The notes under the pieces were generated by a model. It was not told the DNA's origin and searched no databases. It saw only the letters and a program-made list of their open reading frames with translations. Positions 98 through 52,028 of a stretch of DNA of 64,000 bases are shown here, one piece after another. A program made the position numbers and the translations under genes. The stretch's first letter is position 1, and each line of letters begins with the position of its first letter. The stretch comes from Natrinema amylolyticum. Its GTDB lineage: Archaea > Halobacteriota > Halobacteria > Halobacteriales > Natrialbaceae. Location: assembly GCF_020515625.1 (NCBI RefSeq), contig NZ_JAIWPJ010000004.1, forward strand, positions 186,001 to 250,000, written 5' to 3'.

Positions 98-1957
98 TCA
101 CTCCGCGCGATTCGTGGTCGCGATCTCGCCCGCCCGGCACTCGAGGAGTCGGTCGCCGTCGGCCGTCTCGATCGCGACGCGGTCGTCGTCGGCAGTCACG
201 AGTTCCGGCGTCCGGTCGAAATCGACCGGCCCCTCGGCCGTCGCTCGGACGGCAGTGGCCAGCCAGTGTTCACCGGCGTCGTACTGCTTTCGGAGCGTCG
301 GGACGACCGTACGCGGGTGCATGAGGTTCGTGTTCGGTTCCTCGGGGACGATCTCCGGGTTTCGGTCGGCACGCAGATCGGTGACGACGCTCGTCCCGTT
401 CGGATACGCGGCGCGGGCGGTCGCTCCCTCGGTCCCGTGGGTGAACTGCGTCGGATCGTCGTCGCCCGTCCGATCGAGCGCGAATCCGCCCTCCTCGCTG
501 TGAAGCGGTCGCGACGTCTCGAGGCGGTGGACCCGGACGTGCCAGGGGAGCGCCGGCGCCAGCCAGGTTTCGACGCGGACGTCGTCCCACGGGGACCACA
601 GCGATTTGAGGGTCGTCTCGTCGACTTCGGTCGCGGCGACCGACTCGGAGGCGGGGGTCTTGTACCGGTCGCCGTCCGGGCTGAGCGCGAGCGTGCTGTC
701 GTGTCCCGCCTCCCCGAGGCCCACGTTCTGCCCGGCCATGGAGAACCCGAAGGTCGCGGAGTAGGCGAACTTCCCGTACTTCTCCGGCCCGTAGATGCTG
801 TTCTGGGCGAGCGAGAGCGCGAACAGGTGGTCGTCGTCCCGACAGATGACTTTCCGAGGCTCGGACTGGACGACCGTCTCGGGTCGGTCGGGAAGCGGTT
901 CCTCGTCGGCCTGCCAGAACGGATGCGTCGGCTCGAGCGCGAGCGGCAGGAACGCCTTCGTCGCCCAGTACGGCGAGTTCGGCGAGTTGTACACCTCAGA
1001 CGTCTTCAGCGTCGGATATCGGTAGCCGACCGACAGCAGGCCCCCGTCCGTGAAGATCGGCTGGTTCAGCCACCAGCGGACGTTCCGCGCCCAGAGCCCT
1101 CTGAGGACACCCCACGGGAGCGGGTTCAGGTCGGCGAACGCGAGCGCGCCCCAGAACCCGGCCTGCGCGAAGCGGTAGGTGAGGCTTCGACCGTAGGGGA
1201 GCGCGCGTCCCTCGTCGTCGAACCAGTGGACGTGCTCGGTCGCGAACTCGGCGGCCCGCTCGCGAAACCGGCTGGCCCGCTCCGGATCCTCGTCGCCGCA
1301 GACGGCTGCGTAGACGAGTCCGTAGAAGTGCATCGCCCACGGCAGGTAGTAGTCGATCGGACTTCCATCCCCCACCGGGCCGTCGGTGTACCAGCCCCCG
1401 CCCTGATAGAACGACTCGAGTCGATCCAGCGACGACTGCGTGCCCTCCCAGTCGTGGTCGGCCCCGACCGATCGGAGCCCCATGTTGACCATGACCCGGA
1501 AGAACAGCCAGTTACAGTCGTGGAGGTCGGCGTCGTTGATCTGGTTCAGCCAGCGGACGAGTCGCTCCCGCTCCGGTTCGGAGAGCGGGTCCCAGATTCG
1601 GTCGGGAGTCAACGCGAGTCCGAGCCCGATCGCGGCCATCTCGACGTGTTTCTGGGAGTAGTCGTCCGCCTCGCCCCAGTACTCGTCGTGGCTCGGGTCC
1701 GTGCCGTTGACGAGGCCGCGTCGAACGAGATCCCACTGCTCGGACGTCCCGTGGACGCTCAGCGGAACGAGCCCCCACAGCGGTCGCGCGAACCCCTCGA
1801 GTTCGGCGGCGACGGCGGGGAAGTGAGCGCCGGTCGCCATCGGTCGCACTCGCGCACCACTGGGGCTGGCGTGATCGTACAACGGGTCGACGAGGTCCTC
1901 GACGGCTCGTTCGAAATCGGCTCGCGTCCGGAGCGAATTCTCCGCGACTGGGTTCAT
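98..1957 (-). CDS. DUF2264 domain-containing protein
   Basis: The 619-residue protein matches the DUF2264 family over its whole length. The family is predicted to have an alpha/alpha-barrel N-terminal part followed by beta-rich sequence, and it is often found among polysaccharide-degradation genes. No member has a reaction I can assign with confidence. The N-terminal half is rich in Trp and Tyr (for example WGLVPL near residue 62 and GGWYTDGP near residue 193), as in sugar-binding helical barrels. No signal peptide or membrane segment is visible, so it should be cytoplasmic. The ATG at 1957 lies about 27 bases downstream of a TATA-like TTTTAGA (1980-1986 on the minus strand), which suggests a leaderless transcript. 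It is divergent from the GH2 beta-galactosidase gene, 139 bases away. Confidence 0.85.
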   Translation of the reverse strand: MNPVAENSLRTRADFERAVEDLVDPLYDHASPSGARVRPMATGAHFPAVAAELEGFARPLWGLVPLSVHGTSEQWDLVRRGLVNGTDPSHDEYWGEADDYSQKHVEMAAIGLGLALTPDRIWDPLSEPERERLVRWLNQINDADLHDCNWLFFRVMVNMGLRSVGADHDWEGTQSSLDRLESFYQGGGWYTDGPVGDGSPIDYYLPWAMHFYGLVYAAVCGDEDPERASRFRERAAEFATEHVHWFDDEGRALPYGRSLTYRFAQAGFWGALAFADLNPLPWGVLRGLWARNVRWWLNQPIFTDGGLLSVGYRYPTLKTSEVYNSPNSPYWATKAFLPLALEPTHPFWQADEEPLPDRPETVVQSEPRKVICRDDDHLFALSLAQNSIYGPEKYGKFAYSATFGFSMAGQNVGLGEAGHDSTLALSPDGDRYKTPASESVAATEVDETTLKSLWSPWDDVRVETWLAPALPWHVRVHRLETSRPLHSEEGGFALDRTGDDDPTQFTHGTEGATARAAYPNGTSVVTDLRADRNPEIVPEEPNTNLMHPRTVVPTLRKQYDAGEHWLATAVRATAEGPVDFDRTPELVTADDDRVAIETADGDRLLECRAGEIATTNRAE

Positions 1958-12053: not shown

Positions 12054-14084
12054 TCACAGTCGATCGAAGCGGAACTGCTGATTGAGAGTCCCGTCGAAGG
12101 ACCGCTGCGTTATCCTCGTTCCGGGAGCCCGCCCCCATTCGGCGACGGTGGCGGCCCGACCGCTGTGCACCGCTTCGATGCGGTACCGGCCGCCGAGGAG
12201 CGGGGTGATCTCCCACCGCTGATGGGGCGCACCGACGTCTTCACCGACGGACAGTACCGCGCCCTCCTCGCTCGAGGCGTCGGCGACCTCGAGAACGCGT
12301 CCGTCGTCGGCCGCGATCCGATAGGTGCCGTCGGCGAGCCGGTCGACGGTCCACCGCTGCTCCGTGGCGGCCGACCACTCGTCCTGGACCACGTCCGATC
12401 CGTCGACTGCCAGCGAGAGATCGGTGTGTCGAGCCCTGATGCGATAGGTCCCGGTAGTGACGGGAGACGCGTCCGCCTCGGTGAGCGGCCCAGCGGTGCC
12501 TCGCGTCCGGTCGACGATGTAGTGCAACTCGAGGTCGTCGTCGGGGACGGTCTCCCACTCGACGACGAGGTCCCAGGCGTCGCCGGTCCACTCGAAGCGA
12601 TGGGTCCAGGCGACCGGACCGGTCGGGGCGGCCGCGAACTCGGCGCGCAGCGACAGTGATCCTGCATATTCGTCCGAGACGTCCGCGACGCGCGCGGCCG
12701 GGATAGATCCGGACTCGAGGGTGACGGTCCCGGAGTCGACGCCGTCGCCCACGTTATCGCGGACAATCGTATCCGGCGAATCAGCCTCGATGAGCCCCTT
12801 GGCACCGCCGTTCCGGACGTCGTTGTCGACGAAGCGGCCGTTCGTGCCCTCGGAGACGATCGCGTAGGTTTGATCGCACGCCGTCGGCGGCCGGTCGTCG
12901 GTGATTCGGACGTCGCTGACCGAGACGCCGTCGCCGGTAGAGAGGATCGCTTCCTTCGTGACGTTCTTGATGAGGCCGCCCTGCAGCGTCACGTTCTCGA
13001 CGTCGTCGATCTTGACTCCTCTGTCTTTGGCACCGATAACGGTGGCCCGTCCGATGGTGACATCGTTCGAATCGGTCGTGATGTGAATTCCGCGGGGCGC
13101 GTCTCGACTGACGATCTGGCCGACGGTGACGTTTCTGCAGCCGTTTGCACACCGAAACGTCGCGTATAGCGACGGGGAAGACGGATTGTCACCGACGACG
13201 CTATCGACCGTGGCGTCGGTCGTCCCGTTGAGCAGGACGGAGGATCCGCCGTGGCCGGTCGCGAGGACTCGACCGATCTGGACGCGACGCGTGTCGTACG
13301 TTTCGACGGCGTGATGTCGCGCGTTCTCGACGTAGGCGGACCGCAGCTGAATGTCTTCGGCGTCTGCCTCGCGCGCCCGTCCCGAGAGGCGAATTCCCTC
13401 GTTGATCTGCCCGACGTGAACGGGATCGGCCAACTGCTCGTCCCGCGTTCGGTCCGGATCGTGTGACGGCGGAAAGCTGTCGGGCGGATCGAAGTCGGGA
13501 TGGTCCTCGTACGGATCCAGCGCGTCGAGGTCCCGGAACCGGACGCGAACGTCCCCGAGCGTGACCCGGTCGCAGTTCTGGAGGACGAGACCGAACCGAG
13601 GGTTCCCCGCTATCGAGAGGCGCGGTATCTCGATGTCCGTTTCGCCGAGCGCGCGGAAGGGAATGACCAGCGATTCGCCCTCGTCTTCGACGGTGATCTG
13701 TGCCGGGACATCGACAACGGTGTGACTCGGCAGCACGACCTGCGTGAGCTCGTCGACGGGGCCCACCGTTCCGGCCGATGCGACGAGAACGCGTTCTTTC
13801 GTCGTACGGTCGTCGCTCAGACCGTCGACGGCCGCCTGAATGACGTCGAGCATGGCGGTTCCGCTGGCGATACGCTCGTCGGTCCCGTCCGCGTGGAAGA
13901 CGCCGTCGTCGTCTTTCCACACGACGACGTCGGCCTCGCGCGCAGACGTGTGAACGTGATCGACGTCTACTCCGCCGAGATTCGCCAGATCGACCCCGCC
14001 AGCGTCGATATTCGTCTCCCACTCGGCACCCGAAAACCGGCCGTTCGACTCGTCGCGTTCGTTCCGCGTTGCTCTATCGTTCAT
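12054..14084 (-). CDS. Parallel beta-helix protein with C-terminal ricin-type beta-trefoil domain
   Basis: The 676-residue protein has three parts. A short N-terminal module (about 20-80) has a NLGGVDVDHVH segment and a DDDGVFHADGT segment. A right-handed parallel beta-helix (about 90-440) shows repeating V-x-I/V-x-V rungs and many Asn/Asp turns. A C-terminal ricin-like lectin domain (about 540-676) has repeated YRI and QRW motifs. Such proteins often bind or cleave polysaccharide, but no catalytic family can be assigned. No signal peptide is apparent at the ATG, so either it is cytoplasmic or it uses a non-classical route. The N-terminal module resembles that of the Tat-exported beta-helix protein at 33753-35783. 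It lies convergent to the GH115 gene, 34 bases away. Confidence 0.8.
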   Translation of the reverse strand: MNDRATRNERDESNGRFSGAEWETNIDAGGVDLANLGGVDVDHVHTSAREADVVVWKDDDGVFHADGTDERIASGTAMLDVIQAAVDGLSDDRTTKERVLVASAGTVGPVDELTQVVLPSHTVVDVPAQITVEDEGESLVIPFRALGETDIEIPRLSIAGNPRFGLVLQNCDRVTLGDVRVRFRDLDALDPYEDHPDFDPPDSFPPSHDPDRTRDEQLADPVHVGQINEGIRLSGRAREADAEDIQLRSAYVENARHHAVETYDTRRVQIGRVLATGHGGSSVLLNGTTDATVDSVVGDNPSSPSLYATFRCANGCRNVTVGQIVSRDAPRGIHITTDSNDVTIGRATVIGAKDRGVKIDDVENVTLQGGLIKNVTKEAILSTGDGVSVSDVRITDDRPPTACDQTYAIVSEGTNGRFVDNDVRNGGAKGLIEADSPDTIVRDNVGDGVDSGTVTLESGSIPAARVADVSDEYAGSLSLRAEFAAAPTGPVAWTHRFEWTGDAWDLVVEWETVPDDDLELHYIVDRTRGTAGPLTEADASPVTTGTYRIRARHTDLSLAVDGSDVVQDEWSAATEQRWTVDRLADGTYRIAADDGRVLEVADASSEEGAVLSVGEDVGAPHQRWEITPLLGGRYRIEAVHSGRAATVAEWGRAPGTRITQRSFDGTLNQQFRFDRL

Positions 14085-27696: not shown

Positions 27697-28773
27697 TTAC
27701 GACCCGTCGGCGAACTGCGACGCGGCGAGGAGGAAGAATCCCTGCCCGTACGACGTCGACGTCAGCGGTGCGCCCGGGCCGCCCGGCGGACCGGCGACCC
27801 GGCGGACAGCGCCCTCGTCGTCGACGAGACCGATCGCGACTTCCATCGCGTCTCGCGCCGCCCGCTCGTATTTCTCGTCCTCGACGATACCCAGTTCGAG
27901 GGCGCGCTTGAACGCGTAGGTGTACATGAGCGTGCCCGAACTCTCGAGGGGCGTGTGGGGGTCGTCGACGATGTTGTACCACATCCCGCTGTCGTCCTGA
28001 CGTTCGACGACCGCCGAGGAAACGTCGCGGAAGATTTCGATCAGTTCGTCGCGGTCGGGATGGTCGTCGGGAAGGTACTCCAGGACGTCCACGATTGCCG
28101 CCTGAATCCAGCCGTTCCCGCGGGCCCAGAAGGTGCTCTGCGGGTAGCTGTTGGGCTGTTCGTGCCAGATGTGACGGAACAGTCCCGTGTGTAGGTCCTG
28201 AAGGTGTTTCGCGTGGACGATGATTTGCTTGGCAGCTTCGTCGAACGCCTCGGGCTCGTCGGCGGCCGCTCCGTACCGCGCGAAGAACGGACACATCATA
28301 TAGACCGAGTCGATCCAGAGGCCCTTCACGCCGGACAGCTCCGGAACGTGGTGGGGGATACCGCCGTCCTCGGTCCGTTCGACCGACTGGAGATTGTCGT
28401 ACTCGCCGCGGGCGGCCTCGAGGTACCGCTCCTCACCGGTTCGGCGATAGAAGTCGAGGACGCCGTGGCCGATCGAGGTCGTGTTGTTCGTGTTCATCGC
28501 CTTCCGCTCATCGATCTCCCAGTGGGCGTCGTACTCCTTGCCGTGCTGAAAGACCTCAATCGGGTAGCTCGGGCCGTAGGAGAGTTGCCCGTTGCTGTCC
28601 TGGGTCTCGACCGCACGGTCGACGAGCGCCCGTGCGGCCTCGGTGCAGTCGTCGCGGTCGGCGGCGAGCAGGCCGTTTATCGCGACGCCTTTCTGCCAGA
28701 CCTCGTTTTCCATGTCCTTGTCGATAGTATACGCTGCGACAGCCGCGATCGTCTCTTCGAGGGACGGTATCAT
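27697..28773 (-). CDS. Glycoside hydrolase family 105 unsaturated rhamnogalacturonyl hydrolase
   Basis: The 358-residue protein is an (alpha/alpha)6-barrel of the YteR/GH105 type, which removes unsaturated galacturonic acid from rhamnogalacturonan oligosaccharides made by PL-family lyases. Typical motifs are WQKGVAINGLL near residue 25, GVKGLWIDSVYMMCPF with the active-site Asp (about 155-170), FWARGNGWIQAA (about 225) and ESSGTLMYTYAFKRA near the C-terminal third. No signal peptide. The frame stays open upstream to 29202, but that part has no family similarity. The ATG at 28773 has a TATA-like element (28803-28814, CTGATAAATCTT on the plus strand) at the right distance. Confidence 0.93.
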   Translation of the reverse strand: MIPSLEETIAAVAAYTIDKDMENEVWQKGVAINGLLAADRDDCTEAARALVDRAVETQDSNGQLSYGPSYPIEVFQHGKEYDAHWEIDERKAMNTNNTTSIGHGVLDFYRRTGEERYLEAARGEYDNLQSVERTEDGGIPHHVPELSGVKGLWIDSVYMMCPFFARYGAAADEPEAFDEAAKQIIVHAKHLQDLHTGLFRHIWHEQPNSYPQSTFWARGNGWIQAAIVDVLEYLPDDHPDRDELIEIFRDVSSAVVERQDDSGMWYNIVDDPHTPLESSGTLMYTYAFKRALELGIVEDEKYERAARDAMEVAIGLVDDEGAVRRVAGPPGGPGAPLTSTSYGQGFFLLAASQFADGS

Positions 28774-28802
28774 AGTGACGATAGCTAAATCTCCGCGGGA
28801 TC

Positions 28803-28814
28803 GCTGATAAATCT
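28803..28814 (-). promoter_or_regulatory. TATA element for the GH105 gene
   Basis: AAGATTTATCAG on the minus strand lies about 33 bases before the ATG at 28773 and supports that start. Prediction only. Confidence 0.45.
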
Positions 28815-29317
28815 TCCTGACGGGACGGACGCGGCTGTCCTTGCAGCTCCAGACTGACGGTGGTACGGCCGACCGCGCGTCCGTCCCGATCGGATCGGTC
28901 TCGAATGTCCGACGCCACCGGAAAGGGCCGAACGGGGACTCGAACGAGTGATAGTCGAATTCCCGAACGGATCCCGAACACTCTCCGACAAACGGTTGTA
29001 CGGATCCGTCCGGCAAAGCCGGAAATATAGCTAGGGCTTCTGAACAGACGTCGCTTCCGATTACAACCATACGTTCGTAAATGTCGCACGGGATTCCGAG
29101 ACGAAGGGCCGGCAATCCGAGCAGGAACGGAGCGAGAACGCTCGAGAGCCGAATAGAATAGCTTTCCGGCGATACCGGATGGAGTGTGCGGGGGATTGGC
29201 ACGAATGGGGTCGCCGAGAGGGACGACCGATCGGACAGCGTGGCGCTACTGGCCCTCGGCGACGATCAAAAGGAGTCGAATACTCGGGCGGCGATCGACC
29301 GCGTCGCGGTACGCCCG
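28815..29317. other. Intergenic region upstream of the GH105 gene
   Basis: About 500 bases between the GH105 promoter and the mutarotase stop codon. Frames stay open here on the minus strand but show no recognisable protein. A short palindromic core TACGTTCGTAA occurs at 29070-29080 and recurs at 15392-15402. No other structure is apparent. Confidence 0.35.
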
Positions 29318-33752: not shown

Positions 33753-35783
33753 ATGACAGGAGACGAGACTCCGTCCGACGGAGAGGAATCGAACGTGACG
33801 ATGGCCCGGCGCGGGGCGCTCGGGCTGCTCGGTACCGCTGGGCTCGGGACCGTACTCGCCGGCACCGCATCGGCACAGGGGAAGGGCAACCAGCCATGGC
33901 ACGAGTGGGACGCTGACGTCAACGCCAACGGCCACAGTCTCACCGAGCTGGGCGCACTCGCGACGGTCGCAAACGACGCGCCGATCGCGGACTTCGCGGG
34001 GGAGAACCTAAATGTGGACGATGACGGCGTCCTCAACGCCGAGGGATCGCCCGAATCGATCCACGTGGTCACCGAGTATCCCGGCGACACGCTCGACCAG
34101 AAACTGGAGAACGTCCTCGACGCGCTCCCGGAGGGCGACGACATCCCGAACAAGCAGCCGGGCCACAAGATCGTGATCCCCGCGCCCGATCCGGACGATC
34201 CGGCAGCGGCCGACGGCCTGCCGGCCTGGCGGTTCGAGTCCCCGGTCGAGATCGACGACAACACCGGCAAACTGGTGTTCGAGATGGGATGGACCCTGAT
34301 CTACGCCACGGAGTCGATCGAGAGCTTCTTCGTCATCGGACCGGACGAGAAGACCGAGAACATCAACCTCTACGGCGGGATGTTCTACGCTAAAGGGAAC
34401 GTAGAGCGGTCGTTCATCGATATTCAGGGGGTCGGCCACATGCACATCTCCCGGCTGTACCTCCAGAACCTGGCGGAGCGAAACAGCGTACCGGCTGGGA
34501 TCCGACTTGCGGACTACCACGGCTCGAGCGAACTGACGATCAAAGACACTGAAGTGACTGGCTGTCGCGACGGCTTCCTCGCCGAGTACGGGAGCGACGA
34601 CGTCCCGTACGGTCCGTCGTTCGACCTCGATATCTCCAACTGGCGCGCGGGCGGCGGCGAGCACAGTATCCGGATCGACGGCGGCGCGTCGATCACGCTG
34701 GACTCGATCCAGGTCGGCGGCCACCCGCTCCAGTCGGTGAGCGAGGACATCATCAGACTAGAGAACTCCGTCAACGAGACTCGGAGCGTGTCGATCTCGA
34801 ACGTCCACGAGCGCCACAACGCGATGGACTACAACAGCGGCGTCAAGGTCGTCGACGTGACCGACGGCGAGGGGCCCCGCCACAACGGGATCATCGTCGA
34901 GAACGTCGACCTGTTCCACGCCGAGTACAGCACCGATATCGAATACGCGTCGTACTTCGATCAGCAGAACCTGCGTCCCGCGCCGAAAGTGAACGACGAC
35001 GCGGCCGGGTCCACGCGCTGGTTCGACGATGGCGTCCAGAAACACGAGACCTACAGTTCCCACGAGTTCCACGCCGGCGGGTCGCCCACGCTCGCCGTCG
35101 GCGAGGACGACGTCAGAATCGACGGCGCCGGCAACGGGGCCGTCCTCACGACGCCTGACGGCCAGAGTCGGTATCGCGTCCGGGTCGACAACGACGGGAA
35201 CCTGATCACCGAAGAAATCGAGGACGGTGACGATCGGACGGGAATCATCGAGAGCTTCGAGGACGGCGACCTCGCCGAGTACGAGGGCGAGACGGACGCC
35301 TACGCGATCGACGACTCGGCGCCGGTCGGCCACGGCGACGCCAGCCTCAAGAACACCTCCGGCGGCACCGCCGTCATCGTCTCGACGAGCGGGCTAGCAC
35401 AGTACCCGCGGGCCGGGGACGCGTTCGCCGCGCAGGCGGCCCGGACCGAGACGAACGCCAATCTCGGCATCGCCTTCGGGGCACAGGACACGGACAACTT
35501 CTACTTCGCTCGGATCTATCCCGAGAGCAACGGCGACCGTCTCCAACTGTACAAGCGCGTCGACGGGGAGTACACCGAACTCGCCAAGGCGAACGTTTCA
35601 GTCGAACGAGACACGCTGTACGACTTCGTCGTCGACTGGGGCGAGTTCGGCGAGATAGACGTCGAGGTCCGAGACCCGTCCGGCGACGCGATCGGGTCGG
35701 TCACCGCCACGGACGAGACGTTCACCGAGGGCGGTATCGGCGTCCGCAGCACCGGCGCCCTCGACAACGTTCGATTCCGCTGA
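33753..35783 (+). CDS. Tat-exported parallel beta-helix protein with C-terminal laminin-G-like domain
   Basis: The 676-residue protein has a twin-arginine signal (MARRGALGLLGTAGLG then AGTASA before the likely cleavage at about residue 42). An N-terminal module (WDADVNANGHSLTELG, DDDGVLNAEGS) is followed by a parallel beta-helix (about 140-400, with repeated V-x-I-x-N/D rungs). A C-terminal beta-sandwich (about 490-676) carries the NFYFARIYPESNGDRLQLYKR and TLYDFVVDWGEFGEIDVEV strands typical of laminin-G/concanavalin folds. No known lyase or hydrolase catalytic motif is recognised. It is the only secreted non-lipoprotein in the cluster, so it may bind or depolymerise the polysaccharide outside the cell. 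It is similar in layout to the protein at 12054-14084. Confidence 0.82.
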   Translation: MTGDETPSDGEESNVTMARRGALGLLGTAGLGTVLAGTASAQGKGNQPWHEWDADVNANGHSLTELGALATVANDAPIADFAGENLNVDDDGVLNAEGSPESIHVVTEYPGDTLDQKLENVLDALPEGDDIPNKQPGHKIVIPAPDPDDPAAADGLPAWRFESPVEIDDNTGKLVFEMGWTLIYATESIESFFVIGPDEKTENINLYGGMFYAKGNVERSFIDIQGVGHMHISRLYLQNLAERNSVPAGIRLADYHGSSELTIKDTEVTGCRDGFLAEYGSDDVPYGPSFDLDISNWRAGGGEHSIRIDGGASITLDSIQVGGHPLQSVSEDIIRLENSVNETRSVSISNVHERHNAMDYNSGVKVVDVTDGEGPRHNGIIVENVDLFHAEYSTDIEYASYFDQQNLRPAPKVNDDAAGSTRWFDDGVQKHETYSSHEFHAGGSPTLAVGEDDVRIDGAGNGAVLTTPDGQSRYRVRVDNDGNLITEEIEDGDDRTGIIESFEDGDLAEYEGETDAYAIDDSAPVGHGDASLKNTSGGTAVIVSTSGLAQYPRAGDAFAAQAARTETNANLGIAFGAQDTDNFYFARIYPESNGDRLQLYKRVDGEYTELAKANVSVERDTLYDFVVDWGEFGEIDVEVRDPSGDAIGSVTATDETFTEGGIGVRSTGALDNVRFR

Positions 35784-40303: not shown

Positions 40304-41140
40304 TTACTCGCCGACGACGTGGTTCTCGAGCGTGCCGATGCCCTCGACCTCGGCTTCGACCGTGTCGCCCGGTGAGAGCAGTTCCGGCGGATCGCGGAAG
40401 ATGCCGACGCCGCCCGGCGTGCCGGTCGAAATGACGGTGCCCGGCTGCAGGGTCATTCTGTGACTGAGGTACTCGATGGCGTCGCCGACGTCAAAGATGA
40501 ACTCCGCGGTCGAGGACTCCTGTTTCACCTCGCCGTTGACCCGAAGTTCGACGTCGGCGTCGTTGGCGTCGATCGCTTCGGGTGCGGTCAGGGCCGGCCC
40601 CATCGGTGCGAACGTGTCGTAGCTCTTACCCCGGAAGAACTGGCCGTCCTCGAACTGGGCGTCGCGCGCGCTGACGTCGTTGACGACCGTGTAGCCCGCG
40701 ACGTACTCCTCGGCCTCGTCGGCCGAGACGTCGCAGGCGGTCCGACCGATGACGACGCCGAGTTCGACCTCGTAGTCGACCTGCTCGACGTCCTCGGGAT
40801 GGACGATCGGCGCGTCGGGATCGGTGACGCTCGAGGGCGATTTCGCGAAGAGCATCGGCTTGTCCGGGATCTCCTCGTCCTGCTCTTCGGCGTGATCGAA
40901 GTAGTTCAGCCCGATACAGATGATCTGCTCGACCGACGGGATCGGGGCCAGCCGGTCCTCGGGCTCGTCGATTTCCGGGAGTTCCCCCGTCTCGACGGCG
41001 CGGCGGACGCGGCGACGGTAGCCCGGCGTCGCGAGGTCCTCGATCGTCGGTTCTCCGAAACGGTCCAGCGCGTACGACTGGTCGTCGACGGTAACGCCCC
41101 AGCGGACGCCACCGCTGGTCGCGAATCGAACGAATTGCAT
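40304..41140 (-). CDS. Fumarylacetoacetate hydrolase family protein, probable 2,4-diketo-3-deoxy-L-rhamnonate hydrolase
   Basis: The 278-residue FAH-family protein has the fold's N-terminal cap, IICIGLNYFDHAEEQ, then YEVELGVVIGRTACDV with metal-binding Glu residues, NDVSARDAQ, and FFRGKSYDTFAPMGP with the conserved Lys. In the diketo-hydrolase pathway an enzyme of this family splits 2,4-diketo-3-deoxy-L-rhamnonate into pyruvate and L-lactate. Placed between the rhamnosidase and the lactate oxidation genes, that role is very likely here. Start is the ATG at 41140 (a GTG precedes it directly). It follows the Fe-S gene after 70 bases. Confidence 0.88.
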   Translation of the reverse strand: MQFVRFATSGGVRWGVTVDDQSYALDRFGEPTIEDLATPGYRRRVRRAVETGELPEIDEPEDRLAPIPSVEQIICIGLNYFDHAEEQDEEIPDKPMLFAKSPSSVTDPDAPIVHPEDVEQVDYEVELGVVIGRTACDVSADEAEEYVAGYTVVNDVSARDAQFEDGQFFRGKSYDTFAPMGPALTAPEAIDANDADVELRVNGEVKQESSTAEFIFDVGDAIEYLSHRMTLQPGTVISTGTPGGVGIFRDPPELLSPGDTVEAEVEGIGTLENHVVGE

Positions 41141-41210
41141 CACCTCAGAATTCCTGTCCTGGATCTTGAATCTTTCTCTCGGGTCGCGGGGACGGACCGC
41201 ACCCGCCCGA

Positions 41211-44121: not shown

Positions 44122-45804
44122 TCAGAGCGGCGGGACGTTGCCCGCGGTCCGGTAGCCGCAGTCGCCGTCGATCGGCGTCTCGGCGGCAGTGCAATCGTTG
44201 TTCGCGAACAGGCGGTCGTCGTCGCAGTCCCTCGCAGAGAGGAAGGTCCGGGTCCCCGGACTCGCCCGGCAGTTCCTGATCGTACTCGTCGTCGTTCCCC
44301 GGAGCGAGATCGCTGCGGCCGTCGTGACCGACCCCGTCTCTGCCGTCCCCGCGGTTGACGCCGTCGCTTCCGGCCGTGCCTGCCGTCCCGCGAACCCGTC
44401 GATCGCGAGCCTCTCGACGTCGACACAGCGGATCCCGTGGGCGAAGTAGTCCGGAAGCTCGTCGCCCCACTTGAGAGCCACGTCGGACAGCGCGAGATCG
44501 GTGACGCGCTCGCAGTGGAGCCCGGAGATATCGGACTCGTAAATCGGGGCCGTTACCGCGGTCGGTTGGAGATCGACGTTCCCGCCGACGCGGTCCGCAT
44601 AGCGGCCGCCCTCGATCGACAGCGAGACTGCATCGAGGCGGATCTCCTCGAGCGTCGCGTCCGCGTGTCCGTAGAGGAGCGCACCGTTCTCCGCGTCGGC
44701 GACGACGTTCGCGAACCGGACGTCTCTGACCGCACCGAGATCAGTGTCGTCGTCGCGCGGGACCGACGTCACGTAGATCGGCTCGGCTTTCCCCCACCAC
44801 GGCCCCGGAAGCAGGTGCGTCTCGACGGTGATGTTCGAGAACAGGACGTGCTCGATCAAGCCGCCGTCGCGGTGCTGGATCCCCAGCCCCCGGTTCGAGC
44901 CGTAGACGACGCAGTTATCGAACGTACAGTGGCGGATATCGCCGCCGGTCTCGGAGCCGAATTTGATCGCACACGCGCTCGAGGCGAGCGTGCAGTTGGT
45001 GACGGTCACGTGCTCGCAGGGCCGTTTTCGGTCGTCGTGAGAGACGAGCGTAATCGCGTCGTCGCAGGCCTCGATCGCGCAGTCGGCGACCCGAACGTTG
45101 CGGGAGTTGCCGATCGCGATCCCGTCACAGTTCGGGATCCGCATGTGGTTGCGGATCGTGACGCCGCGGATATCGACATCGACGCAGTCATCGAGGCTGA
45201 GCGTCCACGCGGGCATGTCTCGTAGCGTGATATCGCGGATCGAAACCCCCTCACAGTCGACGAGGTGAATCATCGGTCCGGGCCGAAACGACGGCTTCGC
45301 GACCGGCCACTCGTCGATCGCTCCCGACCAATCGAGGTAGTCATCGCCCTGTCGGGCGCGATGGGGCGCGTTCGAGACGAGCGGATGTCCCTCGCTCTCG
45401 CCGGAGTGCTGACGGATCGGTTCGTCCGTGTCCATGATCTCGGTCCCCCGTCCGTCGATCGTCCCCTCGCCGACGACGGCGACGTTCTCGACGCCCTCAG
45501 CGAGGACGAACGGCCGCTCGCCGTCGGGGCCGACGTGGCGGTCGACGTACGCCGACTCCGACTCGGCGGGGCGCAGACGTGCCCCCGCCTCGAGGCGGAG
45601 CGTCACGTCACTGCGGAGATGGACGGTTCCGAGGACGTACTCGCCGCTCGAGACGGTAACGGTACCGCCGCCGTCGTCGCGGCAGGCGTCGATCGTGCGC
45701 TGAAAGCGTTCGGTCGCGAGGTCGTCCGTCGACTCCGCGTCTCGGTTCGATTCGGCAGGCGGTTCGATCCGAAACGACGCAGTCGGCTCCGTGGGCTCGG
45801 TCAT
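44122..45804 (-). CDS. Glycoside hydrolase family 28 (polygalacturonase-like) protein
   Basis: The 560-residue parallel beta-helix protein is of GH28 type. An N-terminal pectate-lyase-like strand set (FQRTIDACRDDGGGTVTVSSGEYVLGTV) is followed by the catalytic region PNCDGIAI near residue 226 and EACDDAI near 248, which supply the conserved Asp residues, and KFGSETGGDIRH further on. GH28 enzymes cut galacturonic or rhamnogalacturonan backbones. The C-terminal 100 residues have an Ala/Thr/Gly-rich low-complexity segment. No signal peptide, so it would act on imported oligomers, unusual for a polygalacturonase. A TATA-like ATTTAGACC lies about 28 bases before the ATG. Confidence 0.87.
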   Translation of the reverse strand: MTEPTEPTASFRIEPPAESNRDAESTDDLATERFQRTIDACRDDGGGTVTVSSGEYVLGTVHLRSDVTLRLEAGARLRPAESESAYVDRHVGPDGERPFVLAEGVENVAVVGEGTIDGRGTEIMDTDEPIRQHSGESEGHPLVSNAPHRARQGDDYLDWSGAIDEWPVAKPSFRPGPMIHLVDCEGVSIRDITLRDMPAWTLSLDDCVDVDIRGVTIRNHMRIPNCDGIAIGNSRNVRVADCAIEACDDAITLVSHDDRKRPCEHVTVTNCTLASSACAIKFGSETGGDIRHCTFDNCVVYGSNRGLGIQHRDGGLIEHVLFSNITVETHLLPGPWWGKAEPIYVTSVPRDDDTDLGAVRDVRFANVVADAENGALLYGHADATLEEIRLDAVSLSIEGGRYADRVGGNVDLQPTAVTAPIYESDISGLHCERVTDLALSDVALKWGDELPDYFAHGIRCVDVERLAIDGFAGRQARPEATASTAGTAETGSVTTAAAISLRGTTTSTIRNCRASPGTRTFLSARDCDDDRLFANNDCTAAETPIDGDCGYRTAGNVPPL

Positions 45805-46348: not shown

Positions 46349-47527
46349 TCACCCCTGAATCTCTTCGGACGAGCCGGCCTCGGCTTCCATCGAAACCCGG
46401 TCGACGAGCGAGTGTGCGATCGCGTCGCCCGTGGATCCCTTGAAGAGGTGCACCTTGTCTCGATCGAGGACGACTTCGACCGTCTCGTCCTCTTCGATGA
46501 CGGTATCGGGATCGATAGTCACGAGCAACTCCGCGGCGTCCCCGCCCATGACTTCCGTTTCGTCCGACGCGGCGGTCTGGGGAACCAGGTAGGCGTACGT
46601 CTGATCGCCGACCGGCTCGAGCACGTCGACGACGGCCTCGAAGGGGTCACTCGGCGTCGCGGGGTCGTCCGGGCTCGAGACGAGGTAGACGTCTTCCGGA
46701 CGGATGCCGACCCTGACGTCAGTGCCGTCGCGTTCGGTACCGAGCTCGTGACGGAGCTGGAAGTGCTCGAGGTCGATCGTCTCCCCGCTCATGGCTCCGT
46801 CGAAGATGTTCATCGACGGGCTCCCGATGAAGCTCGCAACGAACTCGTTGACCGGCTGATTGTAACACTCGAGAGGCGGGGCGCACTGCTGCAGGTTCCC
46901 CTTATTGATGATGGCGATACGGTCCGCCATCGTCATCGCTTCCTCCTGGTCGTGGGTCACGTATACCGTCGTGATTCCCAGGTTCTTCTGTAGCCGCTGG
47001 ATCGCGGTCCGCATGTGGACGCGAAGCTTCGCGTCGAGGTTCGCGAGGGGTTCGTCCATGAGGAACACTTCCGGTTCGCGGACGATCGCGCGGGCGATCC
47101 CGACGCGCTGTTGTTGCCCGCCGGAGAGTTCGCTCGGGCTGCGATCGAGCATTCCCTGAAGCTGGACGGTCTTCGCCGCCTTCTCGACGCGGCGGTCGAT
47201 CTCGTCTTGCTCGAAGTTTCGCAGCCGAAGCCCGAAGCTGATGTTCTCGTAGACGTCCATGTGCGGGAACAGCGCGATGTTCTGGAAGACCATCGAAATG
47301 TTCCGATCCTTGGGCGGTTCGTTCGTCACGTCCTCGCCGGCGATCTCGACCGTGCCGTCCGACGGGAGCGTGAGTCCTGAAATCATTTCCAGCGTCGTCG
47401 ATTTTCCACAGCCCGACGGGCCGACGAGACAGAGGAACTCGCCGTCCTCGATCTCGAGGTTCATTTCGTCGACTGCAACGACGGAGTCGTACCGTTTCGT
47501 CGTGTCGTTGAGATTAACGTGTCCCAT
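46349..47527 (-). CDS. Sugar ABC transporter ATP-binding protein (MalK/UgpC family)
   Basis: The 392-residue ATPase has Walker A GPSGCGKS at about 36-43, signature ELSGGQQQR, Walker B VFLMDEPLANLDAKLR, the H-loop VTHDQEEAMT and a C-terminal OB-fold (MOP/TOBE) regulatory domain from about 240 (VGIRPEDVYLVSS). It drives a carbohydrate importer of the CUT1 type with the two permeases encoded just upstream. It starts 4 bases after the stop codon of the MalG-like permease gene. Substrate is set by the binding protein and is not clear from this subunit. Confidence 0.94.
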   Translation of the reverse strand: MGHVNLNDTTKRYDSVVAVDEMNLEIEDGEFLCLVGPSGCGKSTTLEMISGLTLPSDGTVEIAGEDVTNEPPKDRNISMVFQNIALFPHMDVYENISFGLRLRNFEQDEIDRRVEKAAKTVQLQGMLDRSPSELSGGQQQRVGIARAIVREPEVFLMDEPLANLDAKLRVHMRTAIQRLQKNLGITTVYVTHDQEEAMTMADRIAIINKGNLQQCAPPLECYNQPVNEFVASFIGSPSMNIFDGAMSGETIDLEHFQLRHELGTERDGTDVRVGIRPEDVYLVSSPDDPATPSDPFEAVVDVLEPVGDQTYAYLVPQTAASDETEVMGGDAAELLVTIDPDTVIEEDETVEVVLDRDKVHLFKGSTGDAIAHSLVDRVSMEAEAGSSEEIQG

Positions 47528-47531
47528 GTTG

Positions 47532-48452
47532 TCACTCCTTTAAGCCGCCTTGAGTTAAGCCTCTAACGATGTGTTTCTGCGCGAAGACGACGACCAGTGC
47601 AACGGGGATGATCCCCACGATGCTCGCCGCCGCCATCATGTTGTACAGCTGTCCGCTCTGTTGTTCGAACTCGAGGATCCCGTAGACGAGGACCGCCCAG
47701 TTGTCGGCTTCACCGTCGGTCATCATGAACGAGAAGAAGAACTCACGGTAGACGCTGATGAAGACGATGATCGCGGCCGTCGTGACGCCGGGGGCCGACA
47801 GCGGAAGGATGACCCGGAATAGCGCTCCGAGTCGCGTCGTCCCTTCGACCCTGGCAGCGTCTTCCAGTCCGTCGGGGATCTGGCTGAAGAACGTCGTCAA
47901 GATGAAGATCGTGAGCGGGAGGGTCAACATCGTGAACGGGAAGGCCATCGACCACGGCGTGTTGTAGAGGTCCGGCGTCATGAACGGACCGATGGTTAGC
48001 GTGCCCGTCAGCATCTCGTAGAGCGGAATCAGATACGCGATCCCGGGGAAGTACGAGACGACGAGCAAGAGCAACATTAGCGGTCCCTTGCCCCGGAAAT
48101 CGACACGCCCGAACGCGTATCCCGCGAGACTGCCGAGCAACAGGCAGATCACGACGGTGATCGACGCGATGACGACGCTATTGAAGATGTAGTGGTGGAT
48201 CGGGTACTGTTGGAATATTTCGATGAACACCCCGACGTTGGTCCCTTCGGGAAGGATCCCCATCCCGTAGAGCTGATCGCTGGGCGTGATCGCGAGGACG
48301 AACAACCAATAGAATGGGAACAACGTAACGATGATGAACGACGTCAGCCCTACGTAGAATAGGATCCTGTAGGTATCGTACGGGTTGTTGATGAGCAGAT
48401 CGACGAACTGGCCGACGCGGCTTCGGGACTCATCTTGAACTGGATTACTCAC
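47532..48452 (-). CDS. Sugar ABC transporter permease (MalG-like)
   Basis: The 306-residue CUT1 permease has an initial membrane segment (TSFIIVTLFPFYWLFVLAI, about 36-54), an external loop, and five more membrane segments. The EAA loop EDAARVEGTTRLGALFRVILPLSAPG near 210 contacts the ATPase. It forms the translocation pore with the MalF-like subunit, whose gene it overlaps by 8 bases. The C-terminus QKHIVRGLTQGGLKE is typical of MalG-like proteins. Confidence 0.93.
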   Translation of the reverse strand: MSNPVQDESRSRVGQFVDLLINNPYDTYRILFYVGLTSFIIVTLFPFYWLFVLAITPSDQLYGMGILPEGTNVGVFIEIFQQYPIHHYIFNSVVIASITVVICLLLGSLAGYAFGRVDFRGKGPLMLLLLVVSYFPGIAYLIPLYEMLTGTLTIGPFMTPDLYNTPWSMAFPFTMLTLPLTIFILTTFFSQIPDGLEDAARVEGTTRLGALFRVILPLSAPGVTTAAIIVFISVYREFFFSFMMTDGEADNWAVLVYGILEFEQQSGQLYNMMAAASIVGIIPVALVVVFAQKHIVRGLTQGGLKE

Positions 48453-49404
48453 TGGTAGTCACCTCGTTGCGGAATTGGACGAGATACACCATCACGATGA
48501 GTGCGATGATGAGCGCCGTCAGGAAGGCGATCGCGGACGCAGTCGCCCACCGCTGCATTCGGAACGTGTCGACGACGAGGCACGTCAGCGTCGGAACCGT
48601 ACCACAGCCCGCAGACGCCTCCACGACACCGTAGACCTTCATCGAACTGATCGTGTAGAAGATCATGCCGATGAAGACGACGGGTTTGATCAGTGGGAAC
48701 GTGATCAGTTTGAACTCCTGCCACTTCGAGGCACCGGCGACCTTCGCCACGTCATAGAGGCTCTGATCCACGCTCGCGAGACCGGCGAGGATAATGAGCG
48801 CGATGAACGGCACCCGCCGCCAGACGTCGACTAGAATAACGACGATGATCGAATCGCGCGTACTGACGAGCGGATTCGCCGAGAACAGTCCGAGGCTGTG
48901 CAGCGGCTCGACGAGGAAGCTGATCGACGGCTGGAACAGCAGGTAGAAGATCATGCCCTGAATGACGATCGGGATCGACCACGGGAGGAGAACGACCATC
49001 CGTGCGACCGCGCGGCCGCGAAACCCCTTGTTAAGAAGTAACGCCATTCCGAGACCGAGAACGGTCCCCAGAGTGACGCTCACGGCCGTAATGAGGAGCG
49101 TGATGACGAGCGCACTCGAAAGCGGATTGCTCAGGCTGAAAAACGGGTCGCTGAGAATGATGTTGGCGTCTCCGCTGAGAATCGCGGCGTACGTATCGAA
49201 GCCGTTGAATGCTCCGACCGGATGTGAACCGTAGAGATCATCGCTGTGGAGCGAGACCCACAACGTCCGAAGAAGCGGATAAAATGCGAGAACCGAGAGG
49301 ACGAGGATCATGGGTCCGATAAGGAGATACCCGTACTTGTCCTCGTCTAACCGTTCAATCCTGTATAGGATGGGCGATACAGCGCGGTATACGTTCTCTA
49401 ACAT
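48445..49404 (-). CDS. Sugar ABC transporter permease (MalF-like)
   Basis: The 319-residue CUT1 permease has a cytoplasmic N-terminus, a first membrane segment around residues 29-48 (LIGPMILVLSVLAFYPLLRT) and a loop that faces the outside. The EAA-type loop ASVDQSLYDVAKVAGASKW (about 208-226) binds the ATPase. Six membrane segments in total are apparent. It overlaps the MalG-like gene by 8 bases and follows the binding-protein gene after 82 bases, in line with strong expression of the binding protein. Confidence 0.93.
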   Translation of the reverse strand: MLENVYRAVSPILYRIERLDEDKYGYLLIGPMILVLSVLAFYPLLRTLWVSLHSDDLYGSHPVGAFNGFDTYAAILSGDANIILSDPFFSLSNPLSSALVITLLITAVSVTLGTVLGLGMALLLNKGFRGRAVARMVVLLPWSIPIVIQGMIFYLLFQPSISFLVEPLHSLGLFSANPLVSTRDSIIVVILVDVWRRVPFIALIILAGLASVDQSLYDVAKVAGASKWQEFKLITFPLIKPVVFIGMIFYTISSMKVYGVVEASAGCGTVPTLTCLVVDTFRMQRWATASAIAFLTALIIALIVMVYLVQFRNEVTTSE

Positions 49405-49486
49405 TGTAGTGGCCTATTGCACACAAGATTCGCGAACAATCTTGTAAGTTTCGTTCTCCCTGTTCGAATGGTGGCCGTCAGGGCGA

Positions 49487-50971
49487 CTAGAGGTTGGAGT
49501 TTTCGATTTCTTCGACGGCTTCCTGTGCCGACGTAACGGCCTCTTCAGGCGACTGCTCCTGGTTGAGACATGCGTGGAACTCGTCGGCGATCGCATCCTT
49601 CTGCGAGTCCCAGATCTGGTTGATCGGGTGGACCCATTGATTCTCCGATTGGAGCTGGAGCGTGTCGAGATAGCGGCTCATCACCGAGACGTTCTGCGCC
49701 TGATCTGACTCGTACAGGGCTGGCTTCGGTGGTGTCGACCCGGTGTACTCGAAGATATCGAGATAGAACTCGTCAGACGTCATCGCCTTCAGCACTTCGA
49801 CGGCCGCGGGGAGGTTCTCGGAGTTCGGGTTCAGCGAGAGGTGCCAGCCGCCGAGCGTCGCGTTTGTTCCGCCGGTCCCGTCGTACTCCGCTTCGTCCTT
49901 GCTCACGCCGTAGGGGAACGGCATGAGGCCGATGTTGTCCCCGAACGCGTCCTCGCCCGCGAACTGTGCGATCGCGTACGACCAGTTCCGGTGGAAGACC
50001 GCTTCGCCAGCAGCGAACGATTCCTGGGACGGTTGCGTGTCCCAGCCGAGCGCCTCGGATGGGAGGATATCCCCGGTCATCCCGTCCAGAGCATGTTCGT
50101 CGTCGGACCCGTGCATGAACGTTCGCAGTAATTGGAGCGCCTCGATCACCGGCTCGTCGTCGATCGTGATTGGCCGGTCCCCGATGGGTCCGTGCTGGTT
50201 TTCCATGTCACCGAAGTAGTTCCCGCCCATCGTGACGACCTTCTCGTAGCCGGTCTGGTGACCGATCGTCCGCTGATTAAGCGTCGTCGTGTAGGCGTGA
50301 TCGACGTCGTTCGCCTCTCTCGCATCGCGAGCGATTTCAGCGAACTGCTCCCACTGCATCGGCTCTGTCGCCCAGTTTTCGCCCTCCGGATCGTAGCCGG
50401 CGTTCTCGACGTAATCTTTGCGGTAGAGGATCGCCGGAATGTCGACGAACTGCGGAACGCCGTACAGGCCACCATCCCACCGCATCGAATCGACCATCAC
50501 CTGATGATAGTCGCTCTCGATCTCGTCGAGTTTCTCCTCGGGGAGTGCCTCGTTCAGATCGACTAACCATCCCCGCGGCGCGAACGAGGACGTGTACGAG
50601 AAGTTGGTTAGCATAATGTCCGGCGTGCTTCGGCCGGCCTGGAGGATCTGGTTGTACCGATCCTCCTGATCGTCCGCGCCCCAGACGCCAGTCGAAAACT
50701 CGACGTCGATGTTTTCGTGGAGGCCAGCGTTTCGCATCGACTCCTTCAGCTGGTCTTTGATGTCTCCGAAGAGCGGCGCAGTACTGTACTCGACCGTTGC
50801 TTCCTCGCCGTCGTACTCCGAGAAATCTAATTCGTTATCCTCACTGCCGCCGATACAGCCTGCGGTTCCAACGACCCCAGCGACACCGGCCGCCGAAAGA
50901 AATCGTCGTCGTGAGACCGAACTATCGGTTTGCATTCTACCCGTGAATCTATGGTTGACCCTATCTGCCAT
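49487..50971 (-). CDS. Sugar ABC transporter solute-binding lipoprotein
   Basis: The 494-residue protein has a Tat-lipoprotein signal: VSRRRFLSAAGVAGVVGTAGC, with the lipobox Cys near residue 39. A family 1 solute-binding fold with two alpha/beta lobes follows. The start at 50971 is supported by a strong TATA element about 25 bases upstream, giving a slightly extended n-region. An in-frame ATG at 50935 would leave a shorter signal. It is the first gene of the CUT1-type operon and is divergent from the IclR regulator gene. L-rhamnose or a rhamnose-containing oligosaccharide is a reasonable guess from context only. Confidence 0.93.
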   Translation of the reverse strand: MADRVNHRFTGRMQTDSSVSRRRFLSAAGVAGVVGTAGCIGGSEDNELDFSEYDGEEATVEYSTAPLFGDIKDQLKESMRNAGLHENIDVEFSTGVWGADDQEDRYNQILQAGRSTPDIMLTNFSYTSSFAPRGWLVDLNEALPEEKLDEIESDYHQVMVDSMRWDGGLYGVPQFVDIPAILYRKDYVENAGYDPEGENWATEPMQWEQFAEIARDAREANDVDHAYTTTLNQRTIGHQTGYEKVVTMGGNYFGDMENQHGPIGDRPITIDDEPVIEALQLLRTFMHGSDDEHALDGMTGDILPSEALGWDTQPSQESFAAGEAVFHRNWSYAIAQFAGEDAFGDNIGLMPFPYGVSKDEAEYDGTGGTNATLGGWHLSLNPNSENLPAAVEVLKAMTSDEFYLDIFEYTGSTPPKPALYESDQAQNVSVMSRYLDTLQLQSENQWVHPINQIWDSQKDAIADEFHACLNQEQSPEEAVTSAQEAVEEIENSNL

Positions 50972-51263: not shown

Positions 51264-52028
51264 ATGACCGACGATTCACGCTACCCGGTCCAAGCCGCTG
51301 CGACGACGTTCAGAATCATCGAAACGCTTCACGAACTCAATGGAGCGGGCGTTACCGAACTCTCCGCCGAACTCGGAATGGCGAATAGCACGGTTCACGA
51401 TCACCTCCGGACGCTCGCCGAAGCCGAATACCTCGTCAATGAGGGAGGAACCTATCACATCGGTGCGCGATTTCTCGAACTCGGCGGGTTCGCCCGCAGT
51501 CAGATGAAACTCTACCAGATCGCCTCCCCCGAAATCAAGAAACTGGCGGAAGAAACGGGTGAGCACGCGAATCTCATGATCGAGGAACACGGCAAGGGGA
51601 TCTTCCTTAACAAGGCTAAAGGACCGGACGCGGTGAATCTCGATACGCACATCGGCAAGCGAGTACATCTCCACACCACCGCAATGGGAAAGGCGATTCT
51701 CTCGAGGCTCTCCGAAGCGGACGTCGACGAAATTATCGATCGACACGGACTTCCCGGGGTGACCGAGAAGACGATTACTGAGGTCGATGAACTGAAACGC
51801 CACTTGACGAAGGTTCGCGACCAAGGATACGCGATCGACGACGAAGAACGGGTCGCCGGAATGCGGTGTGTCGCAGCGCCGATCTGTGACGACAACGAAG
51901 AACCGATGGGCGCGATCAGCGTTTCCGGACCGACGAACCGGTTCGACGACGAAATGTTTGCGACCGAAATTCCAAAGACCGTCCTGAGCACTGCGAACGT
52001 TATCGAAGTGAACATGACTTATTCGTAA
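51264..52028 (+). CDS. IclR family transcriptional regulator
   Basis: The 254-residue regulator has an N-terminal winged helix (about 8-70, RIIETLHELNGAGVTELSAE with the recognition helix NSTVHDHLRTL) and a C-terminal IclR effector domain (about 75-250, with HLHTTAMGKAILSRL and GMRCVAAPICDDN). Such proteins bind a sugar-acid or aromatic ligand and act on neighbouring operons. It is divergent from the sugar ABC operon, its probable target. In Haloferax volcanii the rhamnose regulator RhcR responds to 2-keto-3-deoxy-L-rhamnonate; a similar role is inference. A palindrome overlaps its own promoter. Confidence 0.93.
   Translation: MTDDSRYPVQAAATTFRIIETLHELNGAGVTELSAELGMANSTVHDHLRTLAEAEYLVNEGGTYHIGARFLELGGFARSQMKLYQIASPEIKKLAEETGEHANLMIEEHGKGIFLNKAKGPDAVNLDTHIGKRVHLHTTAMGKAILSRLSEADVDEIIDRHGLPGVTEKTITEVDELKRHLTKVRDQGYAIDDEERVAGMRCVAAPICDDNEEPMGAISVSGPTNRFDDEMFATEIPKTVLSTANVIEVNMTYS

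What the first reader, a model, noticed from the sequence alone, without database searches (positions are those of the whole stretch)
33753..35783. Single Tat-exported beta-helix protein as candidate new polysaccharide lyase or binding protein
All recognised glycosidases of the island (GH2, GH28, GH42, GH78, GH88, GH105, GH115) lack signal peptides, while GH88 and GH105 need lyase products. The only secreted, non-transporter protein is this beta-helix protein with a laminin-G-like tail and no known catalytic signature. It may be the extracellular depolymerase, or the polymer is cut by an enzyme encoded elsewhere.
Basis: partly seen in the sequence, partly recalled or inferred. Interest (0 to 1): 0.6.

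Follow-up and report, generated by a model that had tools for sequence, protein, structure and literature searches.

The report
Orphan exported beta-helix protein, sugar island
A salt-loving archaeon exports a protein of an undescribed, haloarchaea-only family that probably helps cut or grip a rhamnose- and uronic-acid-rich polysaccharide outside the cell; the "missing" conventional lyase of this gene island lies just beyond the window's edge.

Summary
The gene is real: 676 codons, Tat signal without lipobox, orphan core (residues about 98-430), conserved cap, jelly-roll tail. The core matches no Pfam, NCBIfam, PHROG or PDB sequence. It occurs in 11 haloarchaeal genomes here and is under strong purifying selection. 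A low-confidence AlphaFold model of the core aligns to right-handed parallel beta-helices (Z about 15 to polygalacturonases; tailspikes, PL6 and a surface adhesin score similarly). The tail models as a concanavalin-like CBM66-type domain.

A Tat-exported PL11 rhamnogalacturonan lyase lies 4-6 kb left of the window, with a second Tat beta-helix/RICIN protein and a PL22. But 9 of the 11 genomes lack PL11, two also lack the RICIN-type protein, and in the neighbourhoods examined the gene travels with a sugar ABC importer, IclR regulator, GH88/105 homologue and L-rhamnose genes; in five it is divergent from the importer's binding-protein gene.

Best reading: an exported beta-helix carbohydrate-active protein, more likely an enzyme (lyase over hydrolase) than a pure binder, feeding that importer. 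Catalysis, substrate and active site are unshown. One orthologue (Halomontanus) lacks signal and tail, arguing against an obligate extracellular role.

The parts
33753..35783 (+). Orphan Tat-exported protein, 676 aa: signal, N-terminal module, orphan beta-helix-like core, cap, jelly-roll tail
   Evidence: ORF; no Pfam, NCBIfam, PHROG or PDB sequence match; 10 orthologues; purifying selection
33753..33875 (+). Tat signal peptide (residues 1-41; RR at 19-20, TASA before residue 42, no lipobox)
   Evidence: Sequence; RR conserved in 9 of 10 aligned sequences, absent in Halomontanus
33888..34043 (+). N-terminal module 'NQPWxxWDADVxAxGHxLxxLGAL...' (residues 46-97), shared with many exported haloarchaeal proteins and with one annotated 'tail fiber domain-containing'
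   Evidence: phmmer and tblastn matches limited to this stretch in otherwise different proteins
34044..35042 (+). Orphan core (residues 98-430): N-terminal helix then regular short strands; right-handed parallel beta-helix predicted at low confidence
   Evidence: AF2 pTM 0.46; VIA-align Z up to 15.5 over 243 residues; most conserved part of the protein
35043..35222 (+). Conserved cap (residues 431-490; about 453-490 recur in other haloarchaeal and actinophage proteins)
   Evidence: tblastn hits limited to residues 443-490; alignment
35223..35780 (+). C-terminal concanavalin/LamG-like jelly-roll domain (residues 491-676), CBM66-like fold; absent in 4 of 10 aligned sequences and also fused to sibling beta-helix proteins
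   Evidence: Foldseek to CBM66 4b1m, E 8.5e-5, prob 1.00
46349..50971 (-). Sugar ABC importer: ATPase 46349-47527, permeases 47532-48452 and 48445-49404, Tat lipoprotein solute-binding protein 49487-50971; homologues are direct divergent neighbours of the orthologue in five genomes outside the window's family
   Evidence: Pfam; synteny
51264..52028 (+). IclR-family regulator, homologue next to the orthologue in several genomes
   Evidence: Pfam; synteny
27697..29202 (-). GH88/105-type hydrolase (PF07470, 208 bits); homologue within about 16 kb of the orthologue in seven genomes
44122..45804 (-). GH28 protein without signal (PglB/rhamnogalacturonidase-like), near the orthologue in several genomes
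12054..14084 (-). Second beta-helix protein with RICIN domains; shares the N-terminal module but has no Tat signal

Best explanation
The protein is an exported carbohydrate-active protein of a new, haloarchaea-restricted family: a right-handed beta-helix carrying, in most orthologues, a jelly-roll carbohydrate-binding-like tail. It is folded in the cytoplasm, exported by Tat and released outside. There it most likely cleaves (lyase more likely than hydrolase) a rhamnose- and uronate-containing polysaccharide such as rhamnogalacturonan I or a microbial exopolysaccharide. The fragments enter through the linked ABC importer, cytosolic GH88/105, GH28 and GH78 trim them, and the L-rhamnose is oxidised. 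Shown: Tat signal, orphan core, conservation, linkage to importer, GH88/105 and rhamnose genes, lack of PL11 in most carriers. Inferred: beta-helix fold (low-confidence model), carbohydrate binding by the tail (fold match only), catalysis, lyase chemistry and substrate.
For: Tat signal without lipobox. Core model aligns best to carbohydrate-active beta-helices: GH28 Z 14.5-15.5, PL6 13.6, tailspike depolymerases 13-14.6. Tail aligns to CBM66. Linkage to importer, IclR, GH88/105 and rhamnose genes across three haloarchaeal families; in five genomes it is divergent from the solute-binding-protein gene with 64-172 bp between. L-rhamnose mutarotase and GH88 near it in Haloarcula JP-L23 and N. zhouii. 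9 of 11 carriers lack PL11; PL1 is absent or marginal; two also lack the RICIN-type protein. The core has the lowest dN/dS and many invariant charged residues: 9 His, 12 Arg, 18 Asp, 9 Glu.
Against: Models are poor (pLDDT 41 and 45) and no residue-level active site could be shown. All orthologues are at least 64% identical, so invariance is weak evidence for catalysis. The Halomontanus orthologue has no signal and no tail, with no room for them upstream, and that genome has PL11. PfbA, an adhesin, aligns as well as the enzymes. The GH88/105 homologue's nearest curated (sub-threshold) name is a beta-galactosidase, so it need not act on lyase products. Other lyase families (PL3, PL4, PL9, PL10, PL26, PL42) were not searched in the carriers, and the G263 replicon holds two further beta-helix proteins far from the gene. 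Haloarchaea with PL genes did not grow on pectin or rhamnogalacturonan in culture (PMC9726719).
Confidence: 0.5

Rival explanations
1. Non-catalytic polysaccharide-binding or surface protein: the beta-helix and the jelly-roll tail hold a polymer at the cell surface and present it to a lyase such as PL11 or to the solute-binding protein.
For: CBM66-like tail; adhesin PfbA among the best fold matches; no known catalytic signature; in this genome a PL11 supplies the cutting activity.
Against: The tail is missing in 4 of 10 aligned sequences while the core is the conserved part; 9 of 11 carriers lack PL11, so a cutting partner is not known there.
Confidence: 0.25
2. A highly diverged GH28-type hydrolase, perhaps an extracellular rhamnogalacturonan or polygalacturonan hydrolase, rather than a lyase.
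For: GH28 polygalacturonases lead the structural ranking (Z 14.5-15.5); the gene sits in a GH28-containing island.
Against: No GH28 match in any of 10 orthologues; GH28 motifs NTD/NCDG, GHG and RIK absent and no DD motif in the strand core; no sequence similarity to the island's own GH28 above shuffles or by profile. Z differences among beta-helix families are small.
Confidence: 0.15
3. Tailspike-derived or virus-related cell-surface protein unrelated to nutrition (beta-helix with phage-like N-terminal and cap motifs).
For: N-terminal module matches a protein annotated 'tail fiber domain-containing'; the cap stretch also occurs in actinophage proteins; tailspikes are among the fold matches.
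Against: No PHROG match; no core relative in IMG/VR by pattern scan; phage matches are limited to the cap and tail; linkage to sugar uptake and catabolism genes.
Confidence: 0.05

Closest known systems
GH28 polygalacturonases / rhamnogalacturonan hydrolases
   Same: Predicted right-handed parallel beta-helix, best VIA-align Z (15.5 over 243 residues, low-confidence model); pectin-type gene island
   Different: No Pfam match in any orthologue; GH28 catalytic motifs missing; no detectable sequence similarity
PL6 / PL1 / PL9 beta-helix polysaccharide lyases
   Same: Fold class (PL6 Z 13.6, low-confidence model); exported; island with GH88/105
   Different: No sequence match; no lyase signature found; lyase activity untested
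PL11 rhamnogalacturonan lyase (present 4-6 kb outside the window)
   Same: Tat export, same island, plausible shared substrate
   Different: PL11 is an unrelated family with strong Pfam matches (PF18370, PF21348) absent from this protein
Haloarchaeal Tat-exported beta-helix + RICIN proteins (window 12054-14084, C4:182225-184534 and relatives)
   Same: Tat signal in most, the same N-terminal module, often in the same loci; some carry the same jelly-roll tail
   Different: Core not detectably homologous (hhalign probability under 1%)
CBM66 / concanavalin-like lectin domains
   Same: Fold of the C-terminal domain (Foldseek E 8.5e-5)
   Different: 15% identity; no Pfam or PDB sequence match; ligand unknown
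Phage tailspike depolymerases
   Same: Predicted fold class; N-terminal and cap motifs resemble tail-fibre sequences
   Different: No PHROG or viral-contig relative of the core; Tat signal; located in a catabolic island

Membership tests
GH28 | Sequence match to the family profile (PF00295) | tested here: not met
   No Pfam match for the protein; among the 10 aligned sequences only DUF5818 in one, E 0.002
GH28 | Catalytic motifs NTD(G), DD, GHG, RIK | tested here: not met
   Motif scan negative; the only DD hit is at residue 414, after the strand core
GH28 | Right-handed parallel beta-helix | tested here: inconclusive
   VIA-align Z 14.5-15.5 with a pLDDT 45 model
PL1 pectate lyase | Match to PF00544 | tested here: not met
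   No Pfam match; PF00544 absent from the own genome
PL6 lyase | Beta-helix fold | tested here: inconclusive
   Z 13.6 to 7dmk, tied with other beta-helices
PL6 lyase | Lys/Arg base-acid pair with Ca2+ ligands | not testable with these tools
   A crude regular expression found no K..R motif; no reliable model to place residues
PL11 | Match to PF18370/PF21348 | tested here: not met
   No match in this protein; the true PL11 is a separate gene at C4:180030-182039
Any polysaccharide lyase | Beta-elimination giving 4,5-unsaturated products (A235) | not testable with these tools
   Needs an assay
Tat-exported proteins | RR motif, hydrophobic region, signal-peptidase site, no lipobox | tested here: met
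   Sequence and conservation in 9 of 10 aligned sequences; no dedicated predictor was available
Haloarchaeal beta-helix + RICIN family | Homologous core | tested here: not met
   hhalign probability 0.8%, E 0.073; only the N-terminal module matches
Concanavalin-like / CBM66-type domain (tail) | Jelly-roll fold | tested here: met
   Foldseek E 8.5e-5, prob 1.00 to 4b1m; that region of the model has pLDDT about 50-79
Phage tailspike | Relatives in viruses | tested here: not met
   No PHROG, no IMG/VR relative; phage tblastn hits only in cap and tail

The most novel reading that the evidence does not exclude
Founding member of an undescribed polysaccharide lyase (or hydrolase) family confined to haloarchaea: the extracellular enzyme of a rhamnose/uronate-polysaccharide uptake locus that works without PL11 or PL1, possibly on exopolysaccharides of hypersaline microbes rather than plant pectin.
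Probability: 0.4. Interest if true: 0.62.

Novelty: new variant of a known kind. Interest (0 to 1): 0.42.

Why it matters
Haloarchaeal genomes carry polysaccharide lyases, yet strains with them have not grown on pectin or rhamnogalacturonan, and enrichments on pectin or alginate failed, so their real substrates are an open question (PMC9726719; PMC12343721). A conserved exported protein tied to one sugar importer in three haloarchaeal families, and missed by all family libraries used here, gives a concrete and testable handle on it: one gene to express, one locus to delete. If catalytic it would found a new carbohydrate-active enzyme family from archaea.

Tried and rejected
Structure: two AlphaFold jobs (full length and core, 10 rows each) gave pLDDT 41 and 45 because all orthologues are closely related; no active-site geometry can be read. 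Foldseek on the core gave nothing significant (best E 0.23, PL6). Deeper homologues: scans of the two other haloarchaeal families that hold carriers added one orthologue (G728); weak profile hits looked like chance or generic beta-helix pieces. Two Streptomyces tblastn hits at E about 1 are repeat regions of proteins with AAA-type ATPase domains, unrelated. Homology of the core to the island's own GH28 or RICIN-type beta-helix was tested and not found; a by-eye coil-register match to GH28 was therefore not used as evidence. A sole-secreted-enzyme claim for G325 and G263 was weakened, because the G263 replicon has other Tat proteins, including GH43+RICIN and beta-helix proteins more than 100 kb away. 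PADLOC: no match. 'Lyase missing from this genome' rejected by the PL11 beside the window.

Full report
1. The observation. The ORF 33753-35783 (+) encodes 676 aa. The N-terminus MTGDETPSDGEESNVTMARRGALGLLGTAGLGTVLAGTASA is a twin-arginine signal with an acidic n-region and no lipobox. A scan of the window for RR plus a hydrophobic stretch flags only this protein and two solute-binding proteins; no dedicated signal predictor was available, and the scan is crude.

2. The gene family. The protein matches nothing in Pfam, NCBIfam, PHROGs or PADLOC, and a profile of its core matches no PDB sequence even at E 10. Its core (residues about 98-430) is found in 10 further haloarchaeal genomes held here: three more from the window's own genus, one in another genus of the same family (identified as Halomontanus rarus by its plasmid record), five in one genus of a second family and one in a third family. 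A plasmid of Haloarcula sp. JP-L23 carries one too, and the Natrinema zhouii copy is annotated 'hypothetical protein'. A phylum-wide sample of 393 genomes had no other carrier and IMG/VR none. The core is the most constrained part (dN 0.02-0.22 against dS 0.28-0.80), more than the N-terminal module or the tail.

3. Anatomy. Residues 46-97 form a module (W..DADVDA.GH.L..LGAL) shared with many otherwise different Tat-exported haloarchaeal proteins. The cap (431-490) has short matches elsewhere, including actinophage proteins. The tail (491-676) is missing in four of ten aligned sequences and occurs on sibling beta-helix proteins in N. zhouii, so it is a mobile module; its model, the best part of the prediction, matches CBM66 and galectins. 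The Halomontanus orthologue consists of the core and cap only, with no signal, and about 146 bases separate it from the upstream gene.

4. Fold. The core model is poor (pLDDT 45.5, pTM 0.46). The ranking does not decide between enzyme and binder, or between lyase and hydrolase. GH28 motifs are absent.

5. The wider island. The window is C4:186001-250000 of a 4.71-Mb genome. Just left of it are a Tat-exported PL11 rhamnogalacturonan lyase (PF21348 749 bits, PF18370), a Tat-exported beta-helix + RICIN protein, a PL22-type oligogalacturonate lyase whose start overlaps the window's first 93 bases, and, further left, what looks from its N-terminus like a second rhamnosidase (C4:176962-179724, not scanned), a GH2, a GDSL esterase and a GH4. 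This genome therefore has a conventional extracellular route to unsaturated rhamnogalacturonan fragments.

6. Does the family need PL11? Apparently not. Of 11 carrier genomes only this one and Halomontanus have PL11; PL1 is absent or marginal; the RICIN-type beta-helix protein is lacking in two. In the neighbourhoods examined the gene travels with the importer (solute-binding protein, two permeases, ATPase; about 60-94% identical), an IclR regulator, a GH88/105 homologue (61-93%) and, nearby, L-rhamnose catabolism genes (mutarotase, zinc dehydrogenase, enolase-superfamily dehydratase, amidohydrolase, FAH-family hydrolase, LUD proteins), though not every gene was seen in each stretch. In five genomes it is divergently paired with the solute-binding-protein gene across 64-172 bp. 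In this window the same genes are present in another order. That linkage is the strongest evidence for function: an outside step in the use of a rhamnose-containing polymer.

7. Mechanism. Export by Tat (shown by sequence), action on a polymer (inferred), uptake by the linked importer (inferred from linkage), trimming by cytosolic GH88/105, GH28 and GH78 (family knowledge), L-rhamnose oxidation (family knowledge; NCBIfam places 40304-41143 nearest, below its cut-off, to 2,4-didehydro-3-deoxy-L-rhamnonate hydrolase). I prefer lyase to hydrolase because a GH88/105 homologue is close in every neighbourhood where it was looked for with enough flank, and such enzymes commonly take unsaturated uronides; but its nearest curated name is a beta-galactosidase (sub-threshold), so this is an inference. 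The cytosolic-looking Halomontanus copy and the adhesin-like fold matches keep other readings alive.

8. Novelty. The fold class is ordinary and haloarchaeal pectin-type genes are known (PMC3102087); the core sequence family is undescribed in every library used. The literature notes that haloarchaea with PL genes failed to grow on pectin or rhamnogalacturonan (PMC9726719), with one later strain isolated on rhamnogalacturonan plates but growing marginally or not at all on such polymers in liquid culture (PMC12343721), so the substrate should not be assumed to be plant pectin. Filed as a new variant of a known kind, moderate interest.

Noticed in passing
12054-14084 (-): Beta-helix + RICIN protein whose aligned relatives carry a Tat signal; here the N-terminus (MNDRATRNERDESNGRFSGAEWE...) has none, and only 87 bp separate it from the upstream aldolase gene: apparently a lost export signal.
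   Followed up: partly
contig C4:180030-186093, just left of the window (L053, L063): Tat-exported PL11, Tat-exported beta-helix + RICIN protein and PL22: the pectin-type island continues well beyond the window's left edge.
   Followed up: yes
L007 1402-2697 / L094 11896-13197 (Halomontanus rarus): Orthologue reduced to the core and cap, without Tat signal or tail, near a GH28, an alpha/beta hydrolase and a zinc dehydrogenase.
   Followed up: partly
33888-34043 and many loci (L008-L042): A short N-terminal module (W..DADVDA.GH.L..LGAL) shared by many otherwise different Tat-exported haloarchaeal proteins, similar in style to phage tail-fibre repeats; function unknown.
   Followed up: partly
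L047 286-1632; also L051 17756-19105 and L117 19805-21154: A nickel-pincer cofactor-dependent isomerase of NCBIfam group 22 (488.9 bits, above cut-off, scored on the L047 copy) recurs near the importer in these loci; its substrate is unknown.
   Followed up: no
98-1957 (-): DUF2264 protein at the left end of the window, within the polysaccharide island.
   Followed up: no
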